Positions 2,038 through 59,074 of a stretch of DNA of 64,000 nt are shown piece after piece. The position numbers were made by a program, and so were the translations under genes. The notes below the pieces were generated by a model. It saw only the letters and a list, made by a program, of their open reading frames with translations. It did no database searches and was not told the DNA's origin. The stretch's first letter is position 1, and each line of letters starts with the position of its first letter. This DNA comes from Chloroflexota bacterium (GTDB lineage Bacteria > Chloroflexota > Anaerolineae > Anaerolineales > Villigracilaceae), in the NCBI GenBank assembly GCA_024434165.1, contig QMIW01000001.1, positions 1 through 64,000 on the forward strand, read 5' to 3'.

Positions 2038-2101
2038 GTAGAGTAGGGGCAGGGACGCCATGCACAGATTGCTCCGTGCGGTTTTCCCCACCCCTCTCTC
2101 C

Positions 2102-2135
2102 AAACCGGACGTGAGACTTTCGCCTCATCCGGCTT
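2102..2135 (-). ncRNA. Group II intron domain V catalytic hairpin
   Basis: On the minus strand this reads as AAGCCGGATGAGGCGAAAG followed by TCTCACGTCCGGTTT. The outer stem pairs AGCCGGA with TCCGGTT and the inner stem GAGGC/GTCTC is capped by GAAA. The AGC catalytic triad sits at its 5' base. This is the standard domain V layout. It overlaps the last four codons of the intron-encoded protein. Confidence 0.85.
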
Positions 2136-3861
2136 TCCATTGAATTAAATTTGCTGTCTGGCGGTAGCCGTGTTCAGCCTTGTGGCATGTCAGGCACAGA
2201 GTTTCGAGGGTATCGAGGCTATGGGATTTCGTGCCCTTCTTGTGATGCACACGCGGACTCTCGGAAGAGCCACAGCGTACACACTTGAAGTCGTCCCGCA
2301 TCTTTGCCCGCAGTTTGAGTTCCGCAAGTTCAAGCGGCTCATTGCGTGATGCACGGTTGCTGGTTGCCCCGATGGTTGCCGTGTAAATGGCTTCCTCTGG
2401 CCCTGTTTCTCCCATTGGATAATCCAGCAGGATTGACTCTGCTTCCATCAGGTAGGGATGAGGAAACCCATCTTTTCCCTTTTGGTAGTAGCGTTGTCTC
2501 TGCAATTCCTTTGGGGAGGGTAGCCACTGGTACGCTTCGAGGATTTTCTCCCCTTCGCGTATGCTGGCTGTCCAACGCGTTCTGTTGTGAATGACTTTGG
2601 TCTTGGTTGTAATCAGATTGTGTTTTCGGCTGCCTTTGTGCTTCTTCAGGAGCCAGCCGAGGTATCTGAACCATGTATGGCGGGTGATGTCTTCGATGTC
2701 AGCGAGCAGGCTGGTGTACTTGTAGTACTCCGCCCAGCCCCTCACAATTGCATTCAGGGTGGTCAGCCTGCTGTATTCGTCCATCCATGTCCAACCTCTG
2801 GAAGTCAGGTCTTTGAGTTTCTTCTTGACGCGCTCTTTGCTCTTTTCTGTCGGTCTTAGATGCACCACCCAGCGTCCTTCAGGATTGGTTCTCTGGATAT
2901 GAAATCCCAGAAAATTGAACCCGTCGTTGACATGGGTAAGAAGCGTCTTTTCTTCGGACAGTTCGAGGTGGAGTTGGGTCTTGAGATACTCGCGGATTTC
3001 CTCTTTGGCTTGCTGTACTCCGGCGATACCGTCGTTGCTCATCACAACAAAATCGTCCGCGTAGCGGACGAGACGGTAGTTACCAATTCCAGCATAGCGC
3101 CTGCGGCGTTTTTCGTTGGCGTCCAGATTCCACTTTGCCTCTGCCCACTTGTCGAACTCGTTCAAGTAGACATTGGCGAGCAGTGGAGAGATGACACCTC
3201 CCTGCGGTACACCCGTTGAGGTGTGTGCAAAGAGTCCATCTTCCATGACACCAGCCTTGAGGAACTTCCAGATTAGGTCGAGGATGTCTTTGTCTGCGAT
3301 GCGCTGTTTGAGGATGGAGAGCAACTTGCGATGATGTACCGTGTCGAAGTAGCCCTTGATGTCACCCTCGATTGCGTAGTAATACTTTGATTTTGGTCCC
3401 GTCAGTGACATAACGACCGCAATGGCATCCATTGTGCAACGACCTTTGCGAAATCCAAAGGAGTAGGGTTGGAAGTCCGCTTCGTAAATGGGATCGAGAA
3501 TGGCTCTCAGTGCTTCCTGCACAATGCGATCTCTGAGAACCGGTATCCCCAACGGCCTTTGTTTCCCGTTTGCCTTCGGGATGTACACTCTTCGGACAGG
3601 TTGAGGCTGGTAGGTTTTCCTCTTGAGAGATTCCACGAGTATTCGTATTTCCTGCTCGTAGTTCTTCTTGAAGGTATCCCGTGTTGTGCCATCGGTACCT
3701 GCCGTTGAGCTGCCTGGTCGCGCCAGAACGGCTGCGGCTGCACATTGAATCCAGTAGTCCCAATGCATGAGACTATATAGATTGGTAAAGCGGTGTTGTG
3801 GATTTTCCTGTGCTGCCAGTGCCAGGCTTGTTTGCTTTTGGGACATCTTGGATTGGCTCAT
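2125..3861 (-). CDS. ltrA: Group II intron reverse transcriptase/maturase with HNH endonuclease
   Basis: 578 aa from ATG 3861, chosen because GGAGAAAGGA lies just upstream; the open frame to 4020 runs into intron RNA. Order of parts: RT fingers/palm with [29 protein letters not shown] and the catalytic YADD ([11 protein letters not shown]); the maturase X domain (GWAEYYKY); and a C-terminal HNH/zinc nuclease with CxxC...HH...CxxC ([21 protein letters not shown]). Such proteins help the intron splice and drive its retrohoming into DNA. The stop codon falls inside domain V of the intron RNA, which is odd. All key RT residues are present. Confidence 0.95.
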
Positions 3862-53042: not shown

Positions 53043-53720
53043 CTACAACTGCCGGTCCAGCCATGTCCTCACAATTGAGAGCGACTCGGCGGTGATGGTG
53101 TGACCCATGTGAAGGTTGTGATAGTCCACGTCCACGCCGTATTTCAATAGAAAATCGCGCGACTGGTGCGACCATTCGAGCGGCATACTCGAATCTTCGT
53201 AGCCGTGCGTCATCACGACAGGTTTGCCTTTTACGCCAGCCTCATCCACTTGCAGCCCCGACTGTATGGGAACATAGCCCGACTGGGCAATGACTCCCTT
53301 GATGCGCTGCGGACGGGTGAGCAGAAACGACATGGACATCATGCTGCCCTGGCTGAAACCCATCAGGAAGAGTTTTTGCGGGTCAATCGGATAGGCTTGC
53401 AGCAACTCGCTGATGAAGTTGTCAATCCGTTCCAGCGCCGCTTCGAGTTGAATGGGGTCGGGTTTCCCAAACTCAGTGACGGGATACCAGTCATACGCGC
53501 CGGGGGCAAAGTCCACGGGTCCGCGCCCGCTGACCCACAGCAGGTTATCCTGCAAGTGCGGCGCGAGACCGATCAGGTCGCGTTCGTTGCTGCCGTGTCC
53601 GTGCAGGGCAAAGATGGCGGGGTAGCGAGTCTCTTTGTCAGCGGGGTTGTAACCTGCGGGCATTTGCAAAAGGTGATAAATCGAAAGGTCTGTTTTTTCT
53701 TCGACGGGGATTTGATTCAT
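53043..53720 (-). CDS. Phospholipase/carboxylesterase (dienelactone-hydrolase-like)
   Basis: 225 aa. PAIFALHGHGSNERDLIGLA (oxyanion), LFLMGFSQGSMMSM (GFSQG; catalytic Ser), VVMTHGYEDSSMP (Asp) and HMGHTI (His). ATG 53720 preceded by AGGAG. A decayed fragment of a sister gene occurs at 37655-37750. It is the last gene of the redox operon, or a separate unit after the repeat at 53775. Confidence 0.9.
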   Translation of the reverse strand: MNQIPVEEKTDLSIYHLLQMPAGYNPADKETRYPAIFALHGHGSNERDLIGLAPHLQDNLLWVSGRGPVDFAPGAYDWYPVTEFGKPDPIQLEAALERIDNFISELLQAYPIDPQKLFLMGFSQGSMMSMSFLLTRPQRIKGVIAQSGYVPIQSGLQVDEAGVKGKPVVMTHGYEDSSMPLEWSHQSRDFLLKYGVDVDYHNLHMGHTITAESLSIVRTWLDRQL

Positions 53721-53774
53721 GGGAACTCCTAAAGTTTTTTATATCAGCCACTGTCGTCACAGTGAGGGGACAAT

Positions 53775-53838
53775 TCAAAGCGATCTCGCTTGCAAACGAT
53801 GGATTGCTTCATCGGGCTAACGCCCTTCTCGCAATGAC
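53775..53838. repeat. Intergenic repeat (GATTGCTTC...CGGGCTAACGCCC type)
   Basis: Contains GATGGATTGCTTCATCGGG, then GGGCTAACGCCC and GCAATGACGAGAT, a repeat type frequent between genes of Anaerolineae (general knowledge). GGGC/GCCC can form a small hairpin. No gene here. Confidence 0.5.
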
Positions 53839-53850
53839 GAGATATTTCAT

Positions 53851-54918
53851 TTACGCGCCCGCGCGGACTTGAATTTCCTTGCGGACGACCGGCGCGACTT
53901 TTGTGCCAAGCAGTTCAATCGAGCGCATTAATTCCTTGTGCGTCACCGCGCCGATGTCCATTTGCAGCAGCAGACGGTCGTAATGCAAAATGTTCTGCTG
54001 GAAGAGAATCTTCTCGATGACTTCATCGGGCGTTCCGACATAATCGGAGCCGCGCAGGCTGCGGGCGGATTCGTACTCGGCGCGGTTCAAGCCGCGAAAG
54101 CCGCGCTCGCGTCCCAGTTTGTCCATCATCGCTTTCAAGAAGGGGAAGTAATCGTCCACCGCCTGCTTGGAATCGTCACCGATGAAGCCGCGCGAGTTGA
54201 CGCTCAACTGCCATTGGGCGGGGTCGTGTCCAGCCTGCTGCCAGGCTTGCTGATGCAACTCCGCCAGCGGAGAGAAACGTTCGGGCATTCCGCCGATGAT
54301 GCCCAGCGCCATGGGCAAACCCAACGCCCCGGCGCGCGTGGCGGATTCGGGCGTGCCGCCCACCGCAACCCAAATTGGAATCTCGCGCTGGAGCGGGCGC
54401 GGGTAAATCCCTTGACGGTCCATGGGCGGACGATGCCTGCCGTGCCACGAAACGACTTCGGCGGCGCGAATCTTCAAGAGCAGTTCCAATTTTTCGGCGA
54501 AGAGCGAATCGTAATCATTCAGGTCGTAGCCGAAGAGTGGAAAGGATTCGATGAAGGCGCCGCGTCCCGCCATGATTTCGGCGCGTCCTTCCGAGAGCAA
54601 ATCCAGAGTGGCAAAATCCTGAAAGACGCGCACGGGGTCGTCGGAGGAGAGAACCGTCACCGCCGTGCTGAGGCGGATGGTTTTGGTGCGCGACGCGGCG
54701 GCTCCCAGAATCACCGCCGGGGCGGAGGAAAGAAAATCGGGACGGTGATGTTCGCCGATGCCGAACACGTCCAAGCCGACCTGATCCGCCAGTTCGATGG
54801 TTTCGAGCAGGTGTTTCATGCGCGTCTGCGCGTCCACCTTTCCGCCCGTCTGGGGGTTGGTTTCCCATTCGACGAAGGTGTAGAGTCCGATTTCAAAAGG
54901 TTTGTTAATTTCCGACAC
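53851..54918 (-). CDS. LLM-class flavin-dependent oxidoreductase
   Basis: 355 aa, a luciferase-like barrel: [64 protein letters not shown], and [16 protein letters not shown]. It reduces or oxygenates small molecules with FMN, F420 or similar. Start is GTG 54918, with GGAG 5 bases upstream; no ATG fits. It follows the ferredoxin gene, a likely electron donor. Confidence 0.9.
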
Positions 54919-54947
54919 AAAAACTCCAATGAAGATAAATTGTCTGG

Positions 54948-55253
54948 CTACGCAGCCGCCACGCGCCGCAAGGTGATGGCTTTTTCGGGGCAGGCGGCGA
55001 CGCATTCAGCGCAGGCGTGGCAGGCTTCGGCGCGGACGGGGAAAGCCTGCTTCCAGTCGTGCGCCGCGCCTTTCAATCGCCCGATGAAACTCAGCGCGGC
55101 GCGCTCGTCCGCAGGCAGGATGCCAATATCGAAAACATTGTATGGGCAGACGGCGGCGCACTCGGCTTTGCCTTCGCATTTTTCGCGGTTGACGACAGGC
55201 ATGAAAACGCCCGGCTCCTGCTTGCAGTCTGCGGGTTGGGATGAGACGGTCAT
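54948..55253 (-). CDS. Ferredoxin-type 4Fe-4S protein, 101 aa
   Basis: Two clusters: [12 protein letters not shown] and [12 protein letters not shown] (the C-terminal ones canonical). The first lacks one residue of the usual spacing (CxxxxxCxxxCP), so it may hold a variant cluster. The start overlaps the peroxiredoxin stop (ATGA), indicating tight co-translation. It probably feeds electrons to the LLM oxidoreductase or the Sec-peroxiredoxin. Confidence 0.88.
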
Positions 55254-55726
55254 GGTTTATTTTCCATTCCTTCGACAAATTCCAGCAGTTCGCGGCTTTC
55301 CTGAAGCCAGGTCATCGGGTTGGCAGTGCGTTTTATGTACCGAATTACGCCCTCTCGGTCCAAAACCACCGAGGCAGTGCGCTGGATGACAAAGGCAACT
55401 TTATCCAATCCAAATGCCTGATACACCACGCGGTCAGGGTCGGCAAGCACGGGGAATGGGACTTTGAGTCCTTCCGCATACTTGATGGCGCGTTCTCGTG
55501 TGTCTCCCAAAATGACGAGAATGTCCGCGCCAGCGTTTTGGAAATCTTCAACCATGCGCCCCAACTGGGCGACGTGCGCTCGGCACTGCATTCAGTTGTA
55601 TTCGCGCACGAAGAAAAGCACAAGACGCGACTTGCCGCGATAATCGGCGATTCCCGCTTCGCCGCCTGTGCTGGAGGGCAGCCTAAAATCGGGGGCTCGT
55701 GAACCCACTGTCAACTCAGCGCTCAT
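55250..55726 (-). CDS. Peroxiredoxin-like (AhpC/TSA) selenoprotein with UxxC motif
   Basis: 158 aa when the in-frame TGA at 55594-55592 is read as Sec45. Before the TGA: ELTVGSRAPDFRLPSSTG and SRLVLFFVREYN; after it: MQCRAHVAQLGRMVEDFQ and a complete AhpC/TSA fold (ADILVILGDTRER, LKVPFPVLADPDRVVYQAFG, VVLDREGVIRYIKR). Family members have C-x-x-C here, so TGA replaces the first, reactive Cys. A hairpin 20 bases downstream has loop AGTTG. It would reduce peroxides with a selenol. Overlaps the ferredoxin gene by 4 bases; VOC gene ends 8 bases upstream. A nonsense mutation is possible but the position argues strongly against it. Confidence 0.8.
55547..55594 (-). promoter_or_regulatory. Candidate bacterial SECIS element, peroxiredoxin
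   Basis: After the TGA come 20 bases, then the stem CGCCC/GGGCG (55571-55567 with 55561-55557) around the loop AGTTG. Extending outward through one bulged C gives three more pairs (T-A, G-T, C-G). The loop has GU near its top and lies 25 to 30 bases after the TGA, within the usual 16-37 base window. Confidence 0.6.
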
Positions 55727-55733
55727 GATTCGG

Positions 55734-56675
55734 TCACTTGGTTGATTCCGCCAGTTCGGCAGTGGTCAAAAGTAAAGCGTTTTGGGATGGGTCGCGCAAA
55801 AAGAGACCGTCGGGACGGCGCTCGAAGGCGATTCCTTTTTGTTCAAGCAGACCGTCCATGCGCTCCAATTCGTCGGCGTTGGGCAGGTTGAAGGTGTAAT
55901 AGAGCAAGCCCAGGGCGTCGTCAGGAGGAGGCGGCGCGCCTTCTCCCTGCCAGGTGTTGTAGCCGATGTGGTGGTGATACGCTCCAGCCGAGACCATGCC
56001 CATGCGGAAGCCGCGCGCCGTTCCCATGTCGTCAAAGCCGAGAACGTCGTGGTAGAAACGCAGGGTGTCGTTGAGATTGGCGGTGTAGAGGTGGAAATGT
56101 CCCATGCGGGTTTCGGGCGGAGCGGACAGGTCGAGGCGGTCATCTTCGGTCAGGTTGGAGAAGAGCGCGTCCAAGTCCATCGCTTCGCGCCCGTCGCTGG
56201 TGGAGCCATCGGCGCGGCGGACGAAAAAGTTGCCGTTGCTGATTTCATTCACGCCGTCTTCGGGCGATTCGCAGTACAACTCGATGTTGTTGCCTTCAGG
56301 GTCGTCGAGATAGGTGGTCTTCGTCATGATGTGGTCGGTGGGGTAATTGGTATATTTCATGGCAAAGAGGCGGGCGATGACGCGTGCCAGTTCGCGGCGG
56401 TTGGGGAAGAGGATGGCAAAGTGATACATGCCCGTCACGCTGCGATAGCGCTTGCCATTTTGGATCTGGGTCATACGGACGAGATCGCGCCCGCCCATGC
56501 CCATTGCGGCAATCTGGTCTTTGCGCCAGTTCAACTCCAAGCCAATCGCTGTTTTGTAGAAAAGAATTTGATTTTCGAGATTGGCGACTTTGATATGGAT
56601 ATAGCCCGGCAGGCTTTCAGGGTGGATGCGGTCAGCGGCGATGGCGTGAGGTTTCATTGGGGAGGGTGTTATCAT
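55734..56675 (-). CDS. VOC-family (extradiol dioxygenase/glyoxalase-type) protein
   Basis: 313 aa with two VOC modules. First: GYIHIKVANLENQILFYKTAIGL ... NNIELYCESPEDG. Second: MGHFHLYTANLNDTLRFYHDVLGF ... SAGAYHHHIGYNTWQGEG, with the metal His and Glu pattern as in CatE-like catechol 2,3-dioxygenases. ATG 56675 has AAAGGAAA upstream. Substrate unknown; consistent with detoxification of aromatic or reactive compounds. Confidence 0.88.
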   Translation of the reverse strand: MITPSPMKPHAIAADRIHPESLPGYIHIKVANLENQILFYKTAIGLELNWRKDQIAAMGMGGRDLVRMTQIQNGKRYRSVTGMYHFAILFPNRRELARVIARLFAMKYTNYPTDHIMTKTTYLDDPEGNNIELYCESPEDGVNEISNGNFFVRRADGSTSDGREAMDLDALFSNLTEDDRLDLSAPPETRMGHFHLYTANLNDTLRFYHDVLGFDDMGTARGFRMGMVSAGAYHHHIGYNTWQGEGAPPPPDDALGLLYYTFNLPNADELERMDGLLEQKGIAFERRPDGLFLRDPSQNALLLTTAELAESTK

Positions 56676-56684
56676 ACTTTTCCT

Positions 56685-57182
56685 TTACGCTGGTTTTCCC
56701 TCGATAGACGCGGGTTCAATGGAACGTCCGGTGACAAAATTATATGAATCGACGATGAGTTGGAAGACGACATCCAGTTCTTCCATGTCCATTGGGGTGT
56801 AAACGAGAACCATGCCTTCGTTACCGATTTGCTCGGCGATGGGATGCATCTCCGCCCAGCCTGATGCAATCGCTTCGCGGGCGCGTTCGGGCGAAAGCGT
56901 GATGTGCAGGCTGCCATCGGGGTGAATGTGGGCAAACTCACGCCCAACTAGAATCAATTCCCCGCGCACAAGAGGCAGGTCTTCTCTAAGCCACAAGGCG
57001 CGCGCTCCCGGCACCGAAATCTGCGTCGGTTCGTTGCGGACATCGGGCAGGGCGTAGGCGCGGCGATACAGTTCCGCGTTCACATCAGGAACGGGCTTGA
57101 TCCCGATCTGAGTGTGCGGCATCCATTTGTGGGTTTGTGGGCGGGGTCGTTTTCGTTTGGGAAGTACCGTTAAGTCAGCCAT
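56685..57182 (-). CDS. Luciferase-like DUF5519 protein
   Basis: 165 aa. HIHPDGSLHITLSPERAREAIASGWAEMHP matches the HxHPDGSxH...GWxExHP signature of DUF5519 (luciferase-domain) proteins. The N-terminus is basic (PKRKRPRPQTHKW) and it ends with a MVLVYTPMDMEELD block. The biochemical role is not established. It is ten bases from the VOC gene. Confidence 0.8.
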   Translation of the reverse strand: MADLTVLPKRKRPRPQTHKWMPHTQIGIKPVPDVNAELYRRAYALPDVRNEPTQISVPGARALWLREDLPLVRGELILVGREFAHIHPDGSLHITLSPERAREAIASGWAEMHPIAEQIGNEGMVLVYTPMDMEELDVVFQLIVDSYNFVTGRSIEPASIEGKPA

Positions 57183-57237
57183 CGCTTATCCTTATAGTTG
57201 AATGGGAGGCAAAGTTAGCCTTGCTTCCCATCATTCA

Positions 57238-57627
57238 CTAGAACGAAAGGCTGAGCGCCCAGGGTTGGGGAATCGCCACGAACATCAGCGTGCAGCCCAA
57301 CATGCAGAAATCCTTCATAAACATGAGCATGTCGGTCTGGCGCGCCATGGGGTCTTGAACCGTCCAGAAGTTGTGCATGATGGACGCGACCGGAATGATG
57401 AACAAAACGATCAGGGCAACGCCGATCAGCGGGTATAAGCCGAGCAGAATGCTCAAGCCCCCCAGAATAATCATCGCACCGCTGCCGTACACAGCTAGGG
57501 CGGGGAAAGGCACGCCTTTGGATTGCGTCCAGGGGATCATGGCTTGCGCTTGGGCGAAGTGGGCGTAGCCGCCAAAAATCCAGTACACGCCCACGATGAT
57601 ACGTCCGATAAGAAATACGATGTCCAT
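57238..57627 (-). CDS. DoxX-family membrane protein
   Basis: 129 aa, four helices: IVFLIGRIIVGVYWIFGGY, FPALAVYGSGAMIILGGLSILLGLYP, LIGVALIVLFIIPVASI and CMLGCTLMFVAIPQPWAL. This is the DoxX/DoxD layout; such proteins associate with oxidoreductases and redox stress. RBS GGAGAGAG. Co-directional with the rest of the redox operon. Confidence 0.88.
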   Translation of the reverse strand: MDIVFLIGRIIVGVYWIFGGYAHFAQAQAMIPWTQSKGVPFPALAVYGSGAMIILGGLSILLGLYPLIGVALIVLFIIPVASIMHNFWTVQDPMARQTDMLMFMKDFCMLGCTLMFVAIPQPWALSLSF

Positions 57628-57744
57628 ACTCTACTCTCTCCTTTAGTGAATGGTTGGTTTGAACTTGCAAAAAAATTCGCGCTCTGTAAAGATAGATGTA
57701 AAAATCTGCGGCATTGAAGCGGAAGGCATCACATCCTTTCTGGT

Positions 57745-58353
57745 TTATTTTTGGTCTTTCGCAATCTGTTCCAGCGCTTGCAAAAAGGCTTCATAAGGCT
57801 GCGCGCCGACGATGGCGTAGCGGTCATTCAGAACATAGGTCGGCACGCCCGTCACGCCGATTTGCTGGGCTTCCTGCACCGCGTTATTGACGGCAACGGT
57901 GTGCCTGCCCGCTTCCACTTCGCGCTGCATCTCGTCCGCGTCCAGCCCAACCTGTACAGCGGCGTCGCGCAGAACGTCCCATTTGCTGATGTCTTCGCCG
58001 CGCCCGTAGAATTTGTCGAAGACGACGCGGTGAAACTCAAAGTGTTTACCCTTTTGCGTGGCGTATTCGGTGGCTTCGTGGGCAAGGCGCGTATTGGGGA
58101 TGCGCGTGGCAAAGACCATCTCCAGCCCGGCGGCGTCTGCCATTTGTTTCAAACGGGCATTGGTCTGCGCCATGCGCGATTTGACATAATCGGGCAGGTC
58201 CATTCCTTCGGGCGGTGTGTCGGGGCGCAGGTAAAACGGACGCCATTCGACTTGCGCGTTGTGCTTTTCAATTAACGTTGCGACCACACCCTGGCCGACA
58301 TAGCACCAGGGTCAGACGTAATCGGAATAGATGGTTAGTTTGAGTTGATCCAT
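57745..58353 (-). CDS. FrnE/DsbA-family selenoprotein with UPWC motif
   Basis: 202 aa when the in-frame TGA at 58314-58312 (codon 14) is Sec. The N-terminus MDQLKLTIYSDYV-U-PWCYVG matches the FrnE start SDFVCPWCYIG, so the TGA replaces the first Cys of CPWC. The rest is a full FrnE thioredoxin fold: VEWRPFYLRPDTP, RLAHEATEYATQKGK, NNAVQEAQQIGVTGVPTYVL (cis-Pro) and AIVGAQPYEAF. ATG 58353 has AGGAG 7 bases upstream, which supports reading through the TGA. A 6-bp hairpin lies right after the TGA. It would form or reduce disulfides or isomerise thiol compounds, probably in the cytoplasm. Confidence 0.85.
58289..58314 (-). promoter_or_regulatory. Candidate SECIS element, FrnE-like selenoprotein
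   Basis: Directly after the TGA: CCCTGG...CCAGGG with an 11-base loop that contains TATGTCGG (GU at 13-14 bases past the TGA). Slightly closer to the TGA than typical bacterial SECIS loops. Confidence 0.5.
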
Positions 58354-58375
58354 TTTTTTCTCCTGTTTTGTGATA

Positions 58376-59074
58376 TCAAGCCGTTTGTAGGTGTTTCTCG
58401 AAAAACGCCAGCGTGCGCTTCCATGCGTCGTCGGCGGCTTCGGCGTTGTGCGTGGGACCCGTGTCGTTGAAGAACGAGTGACGCGCGTCCGGGTAGATTT
58501 TGAAATCGTGCGCCACCTGATGGGCTTCCAGCCGCGTTTCCAACTGGCGGGCGGCGGAGGCGGTGAAATCCTTTTCGGGGTAACTGCCGACAATCGGACA
58601 GGAGTCCACCACAGCGTCGAGCGGACGCGGGTTCTGTCCATAGAAAACGGAGGCGGCGCGTAAGTCTTCATCCACGCAAGCCAGTTGCAGGGCATAACTT
58701 CCGCCCATGCAGAAACCAATGGCGCCCACGCGCCCCGCTTCGACTTCAGGGAGGTTTCGCAAAACATCCAACGCGGCGCGTAATTCGCCGACTACGCCGT
58801 TGCTCAACGGGCGGACGAGGATGCCGTGAAAGATGCGCGTCATGCAGGCGATGCGATTGCCTGCGCTGAACAAATCCACTGCCAGAGCAACGTACCCCGC
58901 GCCGGCGAAACGGCGGGCAATATCGCGGATGTTTTCGTTCAGCCCGAAGATTTCGTGGATGACGACCACGCCGGGGAAAGGACCCGCGCCTGCAGGCTTC
59001 GCAAGGTAAGCGTCCAGCGTTCCGCCTTGCGGGCGGGGCAGGGTGAGGGTCTCGGTGGACGGTTCGGCAGTCAT
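58376..59074 (-). CDS. Dienelactone hydrolase family protein
   Basis: 232 aa. PGVVVIHEIFGLNENIRDIARRFA (Glu oxyanion), GAIGFCMGGSYALQLA (nucleophile Cys in GFCMGG), ARHSFFND (His). This is the DLH triad Cys-Asp-His. It opens lactone rings, as in aromatic breakdown. Start ATG 59074 overlaps the thioredoxin-like stop. Confidence 0.92.
   Translation of the reverse strand: MTAEPSTETLTLPRPQGGTLDAYLAKPAGAGPFPGVVVIHEIFGLNENIRDIARRFAGAGYVALAVDLFSAGNRIACMTRIFHGILVRPLSNGVVGELRAALDVLRNLPEVEAGRVGAIGFCMGGSYALQLACVDEDLRAASVFYGQNPRPLDAVVDSCPIVGSYPEKDFTASAARQLETRLEAHQVAHDFKIYPDARHSFFNDTGPTHNAEAADDAWKRTLAFFEKHLQTA

What the first reader, a model, noticed from the sequence alone, without database searches (positions are those of the whole stretch)
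55250..55726. Peroxiredoxin-like selenoprotein: TGA at reactive Cys of a UxxC motif
Seen: one gene broken only by a TGA at codon 45, with normal AhpC/TSA sequence on both sides in the same frame (REYN-TGA-MQC). Family members carry C-x-x-C at this place. A hairpin with a GU-containing loop (AGTTG) starts 20 bases after the TGA. Known: Sec replaces catalytic Cys in several Prx-like families. Inference: this is a selenoprotein that ordinary annotation would truncate to 113 aa.
Basis: partly seen in the sequence, partly recalled or inferred. Interest (0 to 1): 0.92.

Follow-up and report, generated by a model that had tools for sequence, protein, structure and literature searches.

The report
Selenium-containing peroxiredoxin-like redox protein
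A gene that looks broken by a stop codon in a Chloroflexota (Anaerolineae) bacterium is in fact read through to place selenocysteine at the active site of a peroxiredoxin-like enzyme; the kind is already known, but this branch is in no curated family and would be cut short by ordinary annotation.

Summary
The 158-aa frame has one interruption, TGA at codon 45 (UMQC). The same genome has selA, selB, tRNA-Sec(UCA) and a selD that itself carries TGA. Every member of the close family examined has either TGA or Cys here and nothing else; 18 distinct Sec-form sequences were compared with 27 Cys-form ones. A Cys paralogue lies in the same genome. In one pair of genomes 97.8% identical over 3.46 kb, one copy has TGA and the other TGT. 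The hairpin after the TGA is unremarkable by energy alone (z 0.26), but it is conserved and covaries in Sec forms, its loop always reads AGUUR, and most Cys forms have lost it. Fold and sequence place the protein in the Prx-like UxxC class (PF00578): U45 lies where ResA has its first Cys and where true peroxiredoxins have the Thr of TxxC. This is a new member of a known kind. It scores below every NCBIfam cut-off, so ordinary annotation would probably give a 113-aa fragment. A second apparent selenoprotein, DsbA-like with UPWC, lies 2.6 kb upstream in the same cluster. Sec insertion and enzyme activity have not been measured.

The parts
55250..55726 (-). Sec-containing Prx-like protein, 158 aa, AhpC/TSA domain, motif U45-M-Q-C48
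55592..55594 (-). UGA codon read as selenocysteine (codon 45)
   Evidence: TGA or Cys at this codon in all close relatives:
55583..55585 (-). Cys48 codon, partner of Sec45; aligns with the peroxidatic Cys of Prx and the second Cys of ResA CxxC
   Evidence: invariant in A2; PDB profile alignments
55557..55571 (-). bacterial SECIS hairpin, 5-bp stem, loop AGUUG, 25 nt after UGA
   Evidence: model in PMC13188914
54948..55253 (-). ferredoxin (4Fe-4S), start overlaps the Prx-like stop (ATGA)
   Evidence: neighbour conserved in L057 and L061-L063
53851..54921 (-). luciferase-like flavin monooxygenase (TIGR03858, over cut-off)
53043..53720 (-). esterase PF02230, best NCBIfam hit MhqD (below cut-off)
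55734..56675 (-). double glyoxalase/ring-cleavage dioxygenase-like gene directly upstream
57742..58353 (-). second selenoprotein candidate: DsbA-like, U14-P-W-C, TGA at 58314-58312

Best explanation
The gene encodes a selenoprotein of the Prx-like thiol:disulfide oxidoreductase kind (PF00578, UxxC). The UGA at codon 45 is decoded by SelB with Sec-tRNA(Sec), guided by the hairpin 25 nt downstream, giving a 158-residue protein. The selenolate of Sec45, at the N-terminal end of the first active-site helix, most likely attacks a disulfide or peroxide, and Cys48 resolves the product as a Se-S bond that a thioredoxin-type reductant reopens. Shown by sequence: recoding signature, machinery, fold, and Sec/Cys exchange. 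Inferred: actual Sec insertion, the catalytic cycle, and the substrate; the conserved neighbourhood (ring-cleavage/glyoxalase-type dioxygenase, MhqD-like esterase, flavin monooxygenase, ferredoxin, DsbA-like selenoprotein) hints at quinone or electrophile stress.
For: Machinery in the genome. TGA at the same codon in the 12 nearest Sec-form matches (the window gene and 11 others) of a 396-genome class search, next to Cys-form homologues, including a Cys paralogue in the window's own genome. Named genomes, nearly all Anaerolineae: only TGA or TGY at this site. A natural swap: L027 (TGA) and L075 (TGT) are 97.8% identical over 3.46 kb and 456/459 in the gene. Third-position excess of substitutions on both sides of the TGA. 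SECIS: 90% of cells paired, 4 of 6 pairs with changes on both sides, 0/500 shuffles reach the covariation score; loop Leu codon TTR in 18/18 Sec forms against 3/27 Cys forms, P about 8e-10, while TTR is 122/305 of the other Leu codons in the same genes; stem with at least 4 of 5 pairs in 17/18 against 5/27. AlphaFold model pLDDT 88, peroxiredoxin fold, best Z 22.8, rmsd 1.9 over 151 residues.
Against: No proteomics and no selenium labelling. The hairpin is unremarkable by energy, and the loose bSECIS model fires at many TGAs in this window. The sequences compared are related, so the Fisher P values overstate independence. The substrate and the choice between disulfide reductase and peroxidase are not resolved.
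Confidence: 0.96

Rival explanations
1. Pseudogene or sequencing error: the TGA is a nonsense mutation or an assembly error and the gene is dead or truncated.
For: In the window alone, one premature stop breaks an otherwise good frame.
Against: The same TGA recurs at the same codon in many separate genomes and genera with purifying constraint after it and a conserved RNA hairpin.
Confidence: 0.01
2. The UGA is decoded as another residue (Trp/Gly code change or near-cognate read-through) rather than Sec.
For: Only that the frame is open if TGA is read through.
Against: Homologues have Cys, never Trp, Gly or Arg, at the site; the full Sec machinery is present; the gene itself ends in TGA; the hairpin follows the TGA and tracks Sec forms.
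Confidence: 0.02
3. The enzyme is a true peroxidase in which Cys48 (aligned to the peroxidatic Cys) attacks the peroxide and Sec45 resolves it, rather than a thiol:disulfide oxidoreductase with Sec45 attacking. This concerns the chemistry only; it is still a selenoprotein.
For: Fold nearest to Bcp/AhpE/PrxQ; C48 aligns with the peroxidatic Cys, and the invariant Arg116 aligns with the Arg of Sulfolobus Bcp1 before TFVID.
Against: The Pro and Thr of PxxxTxxC are Arg41 and Sec/Cys45 in this family; ResA CPHC aligns residue for residue with U45xxC48; published work describes the UxxC of Prx-like proteins as thioredoxin-like (PMC1088965).
Confidence: 0.35

Closest known systems
Prx-like thiol:disulfide oxidoreductase selenoproteins (PF00578, UxxC/UxxU; PMC9312934, PMC13188914; 'Prx-like protein' of PMC1088965; 'Prx-like 1' of PMC2398784)
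   Same: PF00578 domain, Sec first in UxxC, Cys homologues, bacterial SECIS after the UGA
   Different: a distinct branch (FFVRE-x-x-U-M-Q-C...QRTAS) found here in Anaerolineae, about 30-40% identical to the UPFC branch; not compared directly with the published example protein
SelL-related redox proteins, NCBIfam NF040769
   Same: best NCBIfam hit, E 1e-21 over residues 10-117
   Different: 77 bits against a cut-off of 120, so not a member by the curated rule
Sec-containing peroxiredoxin (TxxU; PrxU, NF040737)
   Same: peroxiredoxin fold and Sec in the active-site region
   Different: here Sec sits three residues earlier, at the Thr position; 29.5 bits against a cut-off of 270 for NF040737
ResA/TlpA thiol-disulfide oxidoreductases
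   Same: CPHC of ResA aligns with UxxC
   Different: the domain starts near residue 7, leaving no room for an N-terminal membrane anchor; the model is closest to Bcp/AhpE structures
UPFC-type Prx-like proteins of the same class (L034-L047, L051)
   Same: TGA at the same column, Cys three residues on, hairpin with AGUU loop in most
   Different: about 30-40% identity, separate branch in the tree

Membership tests
bacterial selenoprotein | in-frame UGA at a position occupied by Cys in homologues | tested here: met
bacterial selenoprotein | selA, selB, selD and tRNA-Sec in the genome | tested here: met
[quoted passage not shown]
   loop AGUUG, 5 bp, 25 nt, -11.9 kcal/mol; criteria from PMC13188914; covariation
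bacterial selenoprotein | Sec detected in the protein | not testable with these tools
   needs mass spectrometry or 75Se labelling
Prx-like thiol:disulfide oxidoreductase (PF00578, UxxC) | PF00578 domain over the gathering score | tested here: met
   88 bits against 26
Prx-like thiol:disulfide oxidoreductase (PF00578, UxxC) | UxxC motif | tested here: met
   U45-M-Q-C48
Prx-like thiol:disulfide oxidoreductase (PF00578, UxxC) | thiol:disulfide oxidoreductase activity | not testable with these tools
   needs an enzyme assay
canonical peroxiredoxin | PxxxT/SxxC active-site motif | tested here: not met
   R41 in place of Pro, U/C45 in place of Thr
canonical peroxiredoxin | peroxiredoxin fold | tested here: met
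   Z 22.8, rmsd 1.9, 151 aligned
SelL-related redox protein NF040769 | curated NCBIfam cut-off of 120 bits | tested here: not met
   77.3 bits

The most novel reading that the evidence does not exclude
A so far uncurated branch of Prx-like selenoproteins in Anaerolineae works together with a DsbA-like selenoprotein in one conserved quinone/electrophile-detoxification gene cluster, so that two Sec enzymes act in one pathway and swap freely with Cys forms in close relatives.
Probability: 0.3. Interest if true: 0.55.

Novelty: new member of a known kind. Interest (0 to 1): 0.42.

Why it matters
It adds a clearly supported selenoprotein branch, below the cut-offs of all curated NCBIfam models, that standard annotation would split into two fragments. 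The Sec and Cys forms, including a nearly identical TGA/TGT pair with the hairpin intact, form a natural experiment on what Sec buys an enzyme and how a SECIS decays after Sec is lost.

Tried and rejected
Rfam gave no SECIS hit at E up to 10 in the region, and RF00031 found nothing in the genome or in any of the 14 control genomes; from my own knowledge RF00031 is a eukaryotic-type model, so neither result counts as evidence. Energy z-score of the hairpin: uninformative. Reading the plus-strand frame across 55250-55726: only a shadow of the minus-strand gene. A window-wide scan for TGA sites with bSECIS-like hairpins gave 100 hits, 30 with a loose redox motif near the TGA; I recognised coding homology on both sides only for this gene and the DsbA-like one, and did not scan the other 28 against libraries. 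Presence or absence of selA did not separate Sec from Cys genomes: 39 of 40 relatives tested have a selA match. Paper searches for Anaerolineae selenoproteins showed nothing on this family by title and abstract.

Full report
Observation. The gene lies on the minus strand, 55726 to 55250. Standard calling splits it into a 44-aa and a 113-aa ORF separated only by TGA at 55594-55592. Read through, it is 158 aa with REYN-U45-MQC48, and PF00578 covers residues 7-131 at 6e-25, across the TGA. The hairpin CGCCC-AGTTG-GGGCG lies at 55571-55557, 20 nt after the TGA. All details of the finding are confirmed; only the strand was missing.

Machinery. The genome (4.4 Mb, 98% complete) has selB (327.6 bits, over cut-off), selA (544 bits), a tRNA-Sec with anticodon tca (67 bits) and selD (367.7 bits). 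The selD reading frame carries a TGA in SACAG-U-ASK, which fits the Sec site listed for SelD (UxxK, PMC13188914). The organism therefore decodes Sec by every genomic criterion tested.

Homologues. A search of 396 genomes of the class gave, at the top, the window gene, eleven other Sec-form genes with TGA at the same codon (55-72% identity), and Cys-form homologues with CxQC (51-54%), one of them a paralogue in the same genome (G000:C26, FIRETSCWQC). A scan of named genomes brought 45 loci, nearly all labelled as Anaerolineae or Chloroflexi MAGs. At this codon they have TGA or TGC/TGT and nothing else. Part of that scan used a pattern ending in Cys, so its Sec/Cys ratio is not meaningful, but one search has no such bias. 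Substitutions concentrate at third positions on both sides of the TGA in all six pairs examined, so the part after the TGA is under protein-level constraint.

A natural swap. L027 (TGA) and L075 (Anaerolineales CHL2, TGT) are 97.8% identical over 3.46 kb, and their copies of this gene differ at 3 of 459 bases, one being the TGA/TGT change. The hairpin is identical in both. This looks like a recent Sec/Cys exchange with a relic SECIS. A sequencing error in one genome is not excluded. Both genomes have selA.

SECIS. By energy the hairpin is ordinary (z 0.26), and a loose bSECIS model matches at 100 TGA sites in this window, so the hairpin alone would not be evidence. Comparison is. On 12 Sec-form sequences the six-pair stem is 90% paired; four pairs change on both sides, and 0 of 500 shuffles reach the covariation score; slid partners score far lower. 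Relatedness can inflate such counts, and the structure was read from these sequences, so this is supportive rather than conclusive. The codon-level test is independent of folding: the Leu codon in the loop is TTR in 18 of 18 distinct Sec forms but in 3 of 27 Cys forms, while the same Sec genes use TTR for 122 of their 305 other Leu codons; the loop dinucleotide GU is kept in 18/18 against 1/27, the one being L075. [quoted passage not shown] PMC13188914): here 5 nt, 5 bp, 25 nt and -11.9 kcal/mol.

Protein. The AlphaFold model (pLDDT 88, pTM 0.86) is a peroxiredoxin fold; best matches are BCP, AhpC-type and Bcp1 structures (Z 22-23, rmsd about 1.9). Profile alignments place U45 on the Thr and C48 on the Cys of TPGC in the Burkholderia enzyme (5enu), and place U45xxC48 on CPHC of ResA. 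Arg41 replaces the Pro of PxxxTxxC, while Arg116 is invariant and aligns with an Arg of Sulfolobus Bcp1. This matches the published description of Prx-like selenoproteins as having UxxC instead of the TxxU of Sec-peroxiredoxins (PMC1088965). The mechanism proposed is therefore thioredoxin-like: attack by the selenolate of Sec45 and resolution by Cys48. A peroxidase cycle is the main rival and is not excluded.

Tree. Changes of state on the protein tree of 56 rows (site 45 masked) need at least 4 steps, with the window gene inside an all-Sec group of 18 rows (support 84) and a large, mainly Cys group beside it (short search, many weakly supported forks). On this tree Sec and Cys have exchanged more than once, but the direction is not settled.

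Neighbourhood. The order DsbA-like, luciferase-domain protein, glyoxalase-type protein, Prx-like, ferredoxin, LLM monooxygenase and/or esterase is kept in part in L057 and L061-L067. The gene 2.6 kb upstream reads MDQLKLTIYSDYV-U-PWCYVG when TGA is read through, hits PF01323 (7e-30, from the ORF after the TGA), and has orthologues with U (L057, L065) and with Cys (L066) at that site; it is probably a second selenoprotein, of the published DsbA-like UxxC kind. The esterase's best NCBIfam hit is MhqD, below cut-off. From general knowledge, Bacillus mhq genes for quinone resistance combine an MhqD esterase, glyoxalase-type dioxygenases and a DoxX protein, and such proteins are also here. Quinone/electrophile stress is a lead, not a result.

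Known or new. UxxC Prx-like selenoproteins have been published since 2005. This branch scores under every NCBIfam cut-off, including SelL-related redox protein (77 against 120 bits), so automatic annotation probably truncates it; existing annotations of these genomes were not inspected. Verdict: a well-supported new member of a known kind.

Noticed in passing
window 57742-58353, minus strand (TGA at 58314-58312): Second selenoprotein candidate: DsbA-like protein with U14-P-W-C; orthologues have U (L057, L065) or Cys (L066) at the site.
   Followed up: partly
L027 versus L075: Genomes 97.8% identical over 3.46 kb differ by TGA versus TGT at the Sec codon while the SECIS hairpin is unchanged: a recent Sec/Cys swap or a sequencing error.
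   Followed up: partly
L054 (G000:C50:39449-40378, minus): The genome's selD is itself a Sec gene (SACAGUASK).
   Followed up: yes
L051 (G000:C162:15117-15509, minus) and L034-L047: A second, UPFC/UPHC-type Prx-like selenoprotein branch is common in this class; many matches of the class search carry one TGA. In L042 the motif is UPFA, without the second Cys.
   Followed up: partly
window 53043-59074, minus strand: Partly conserved cluster of esterase (MhqD-like), flavin monooxygenase, ferredoxin, glyoxalase-type protein, DoxX, DsbA-like and dienelactone hydrolase genes, reminiscent of quinone-detoxification (mhq) genes.
   Followed up: partly
L058-L060, about position 375: Remnant of the DsbA-like gene (about 51 aa matching, with stops around it) near an intact Prx-like Sec gene: the DsbA-like gene appears to be decaying in these genomes.
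   Followed up: no
window 2038-2137, minus strand: Group II intron match (Rfam RF00029, 64.7 bits).
   Followed up: no
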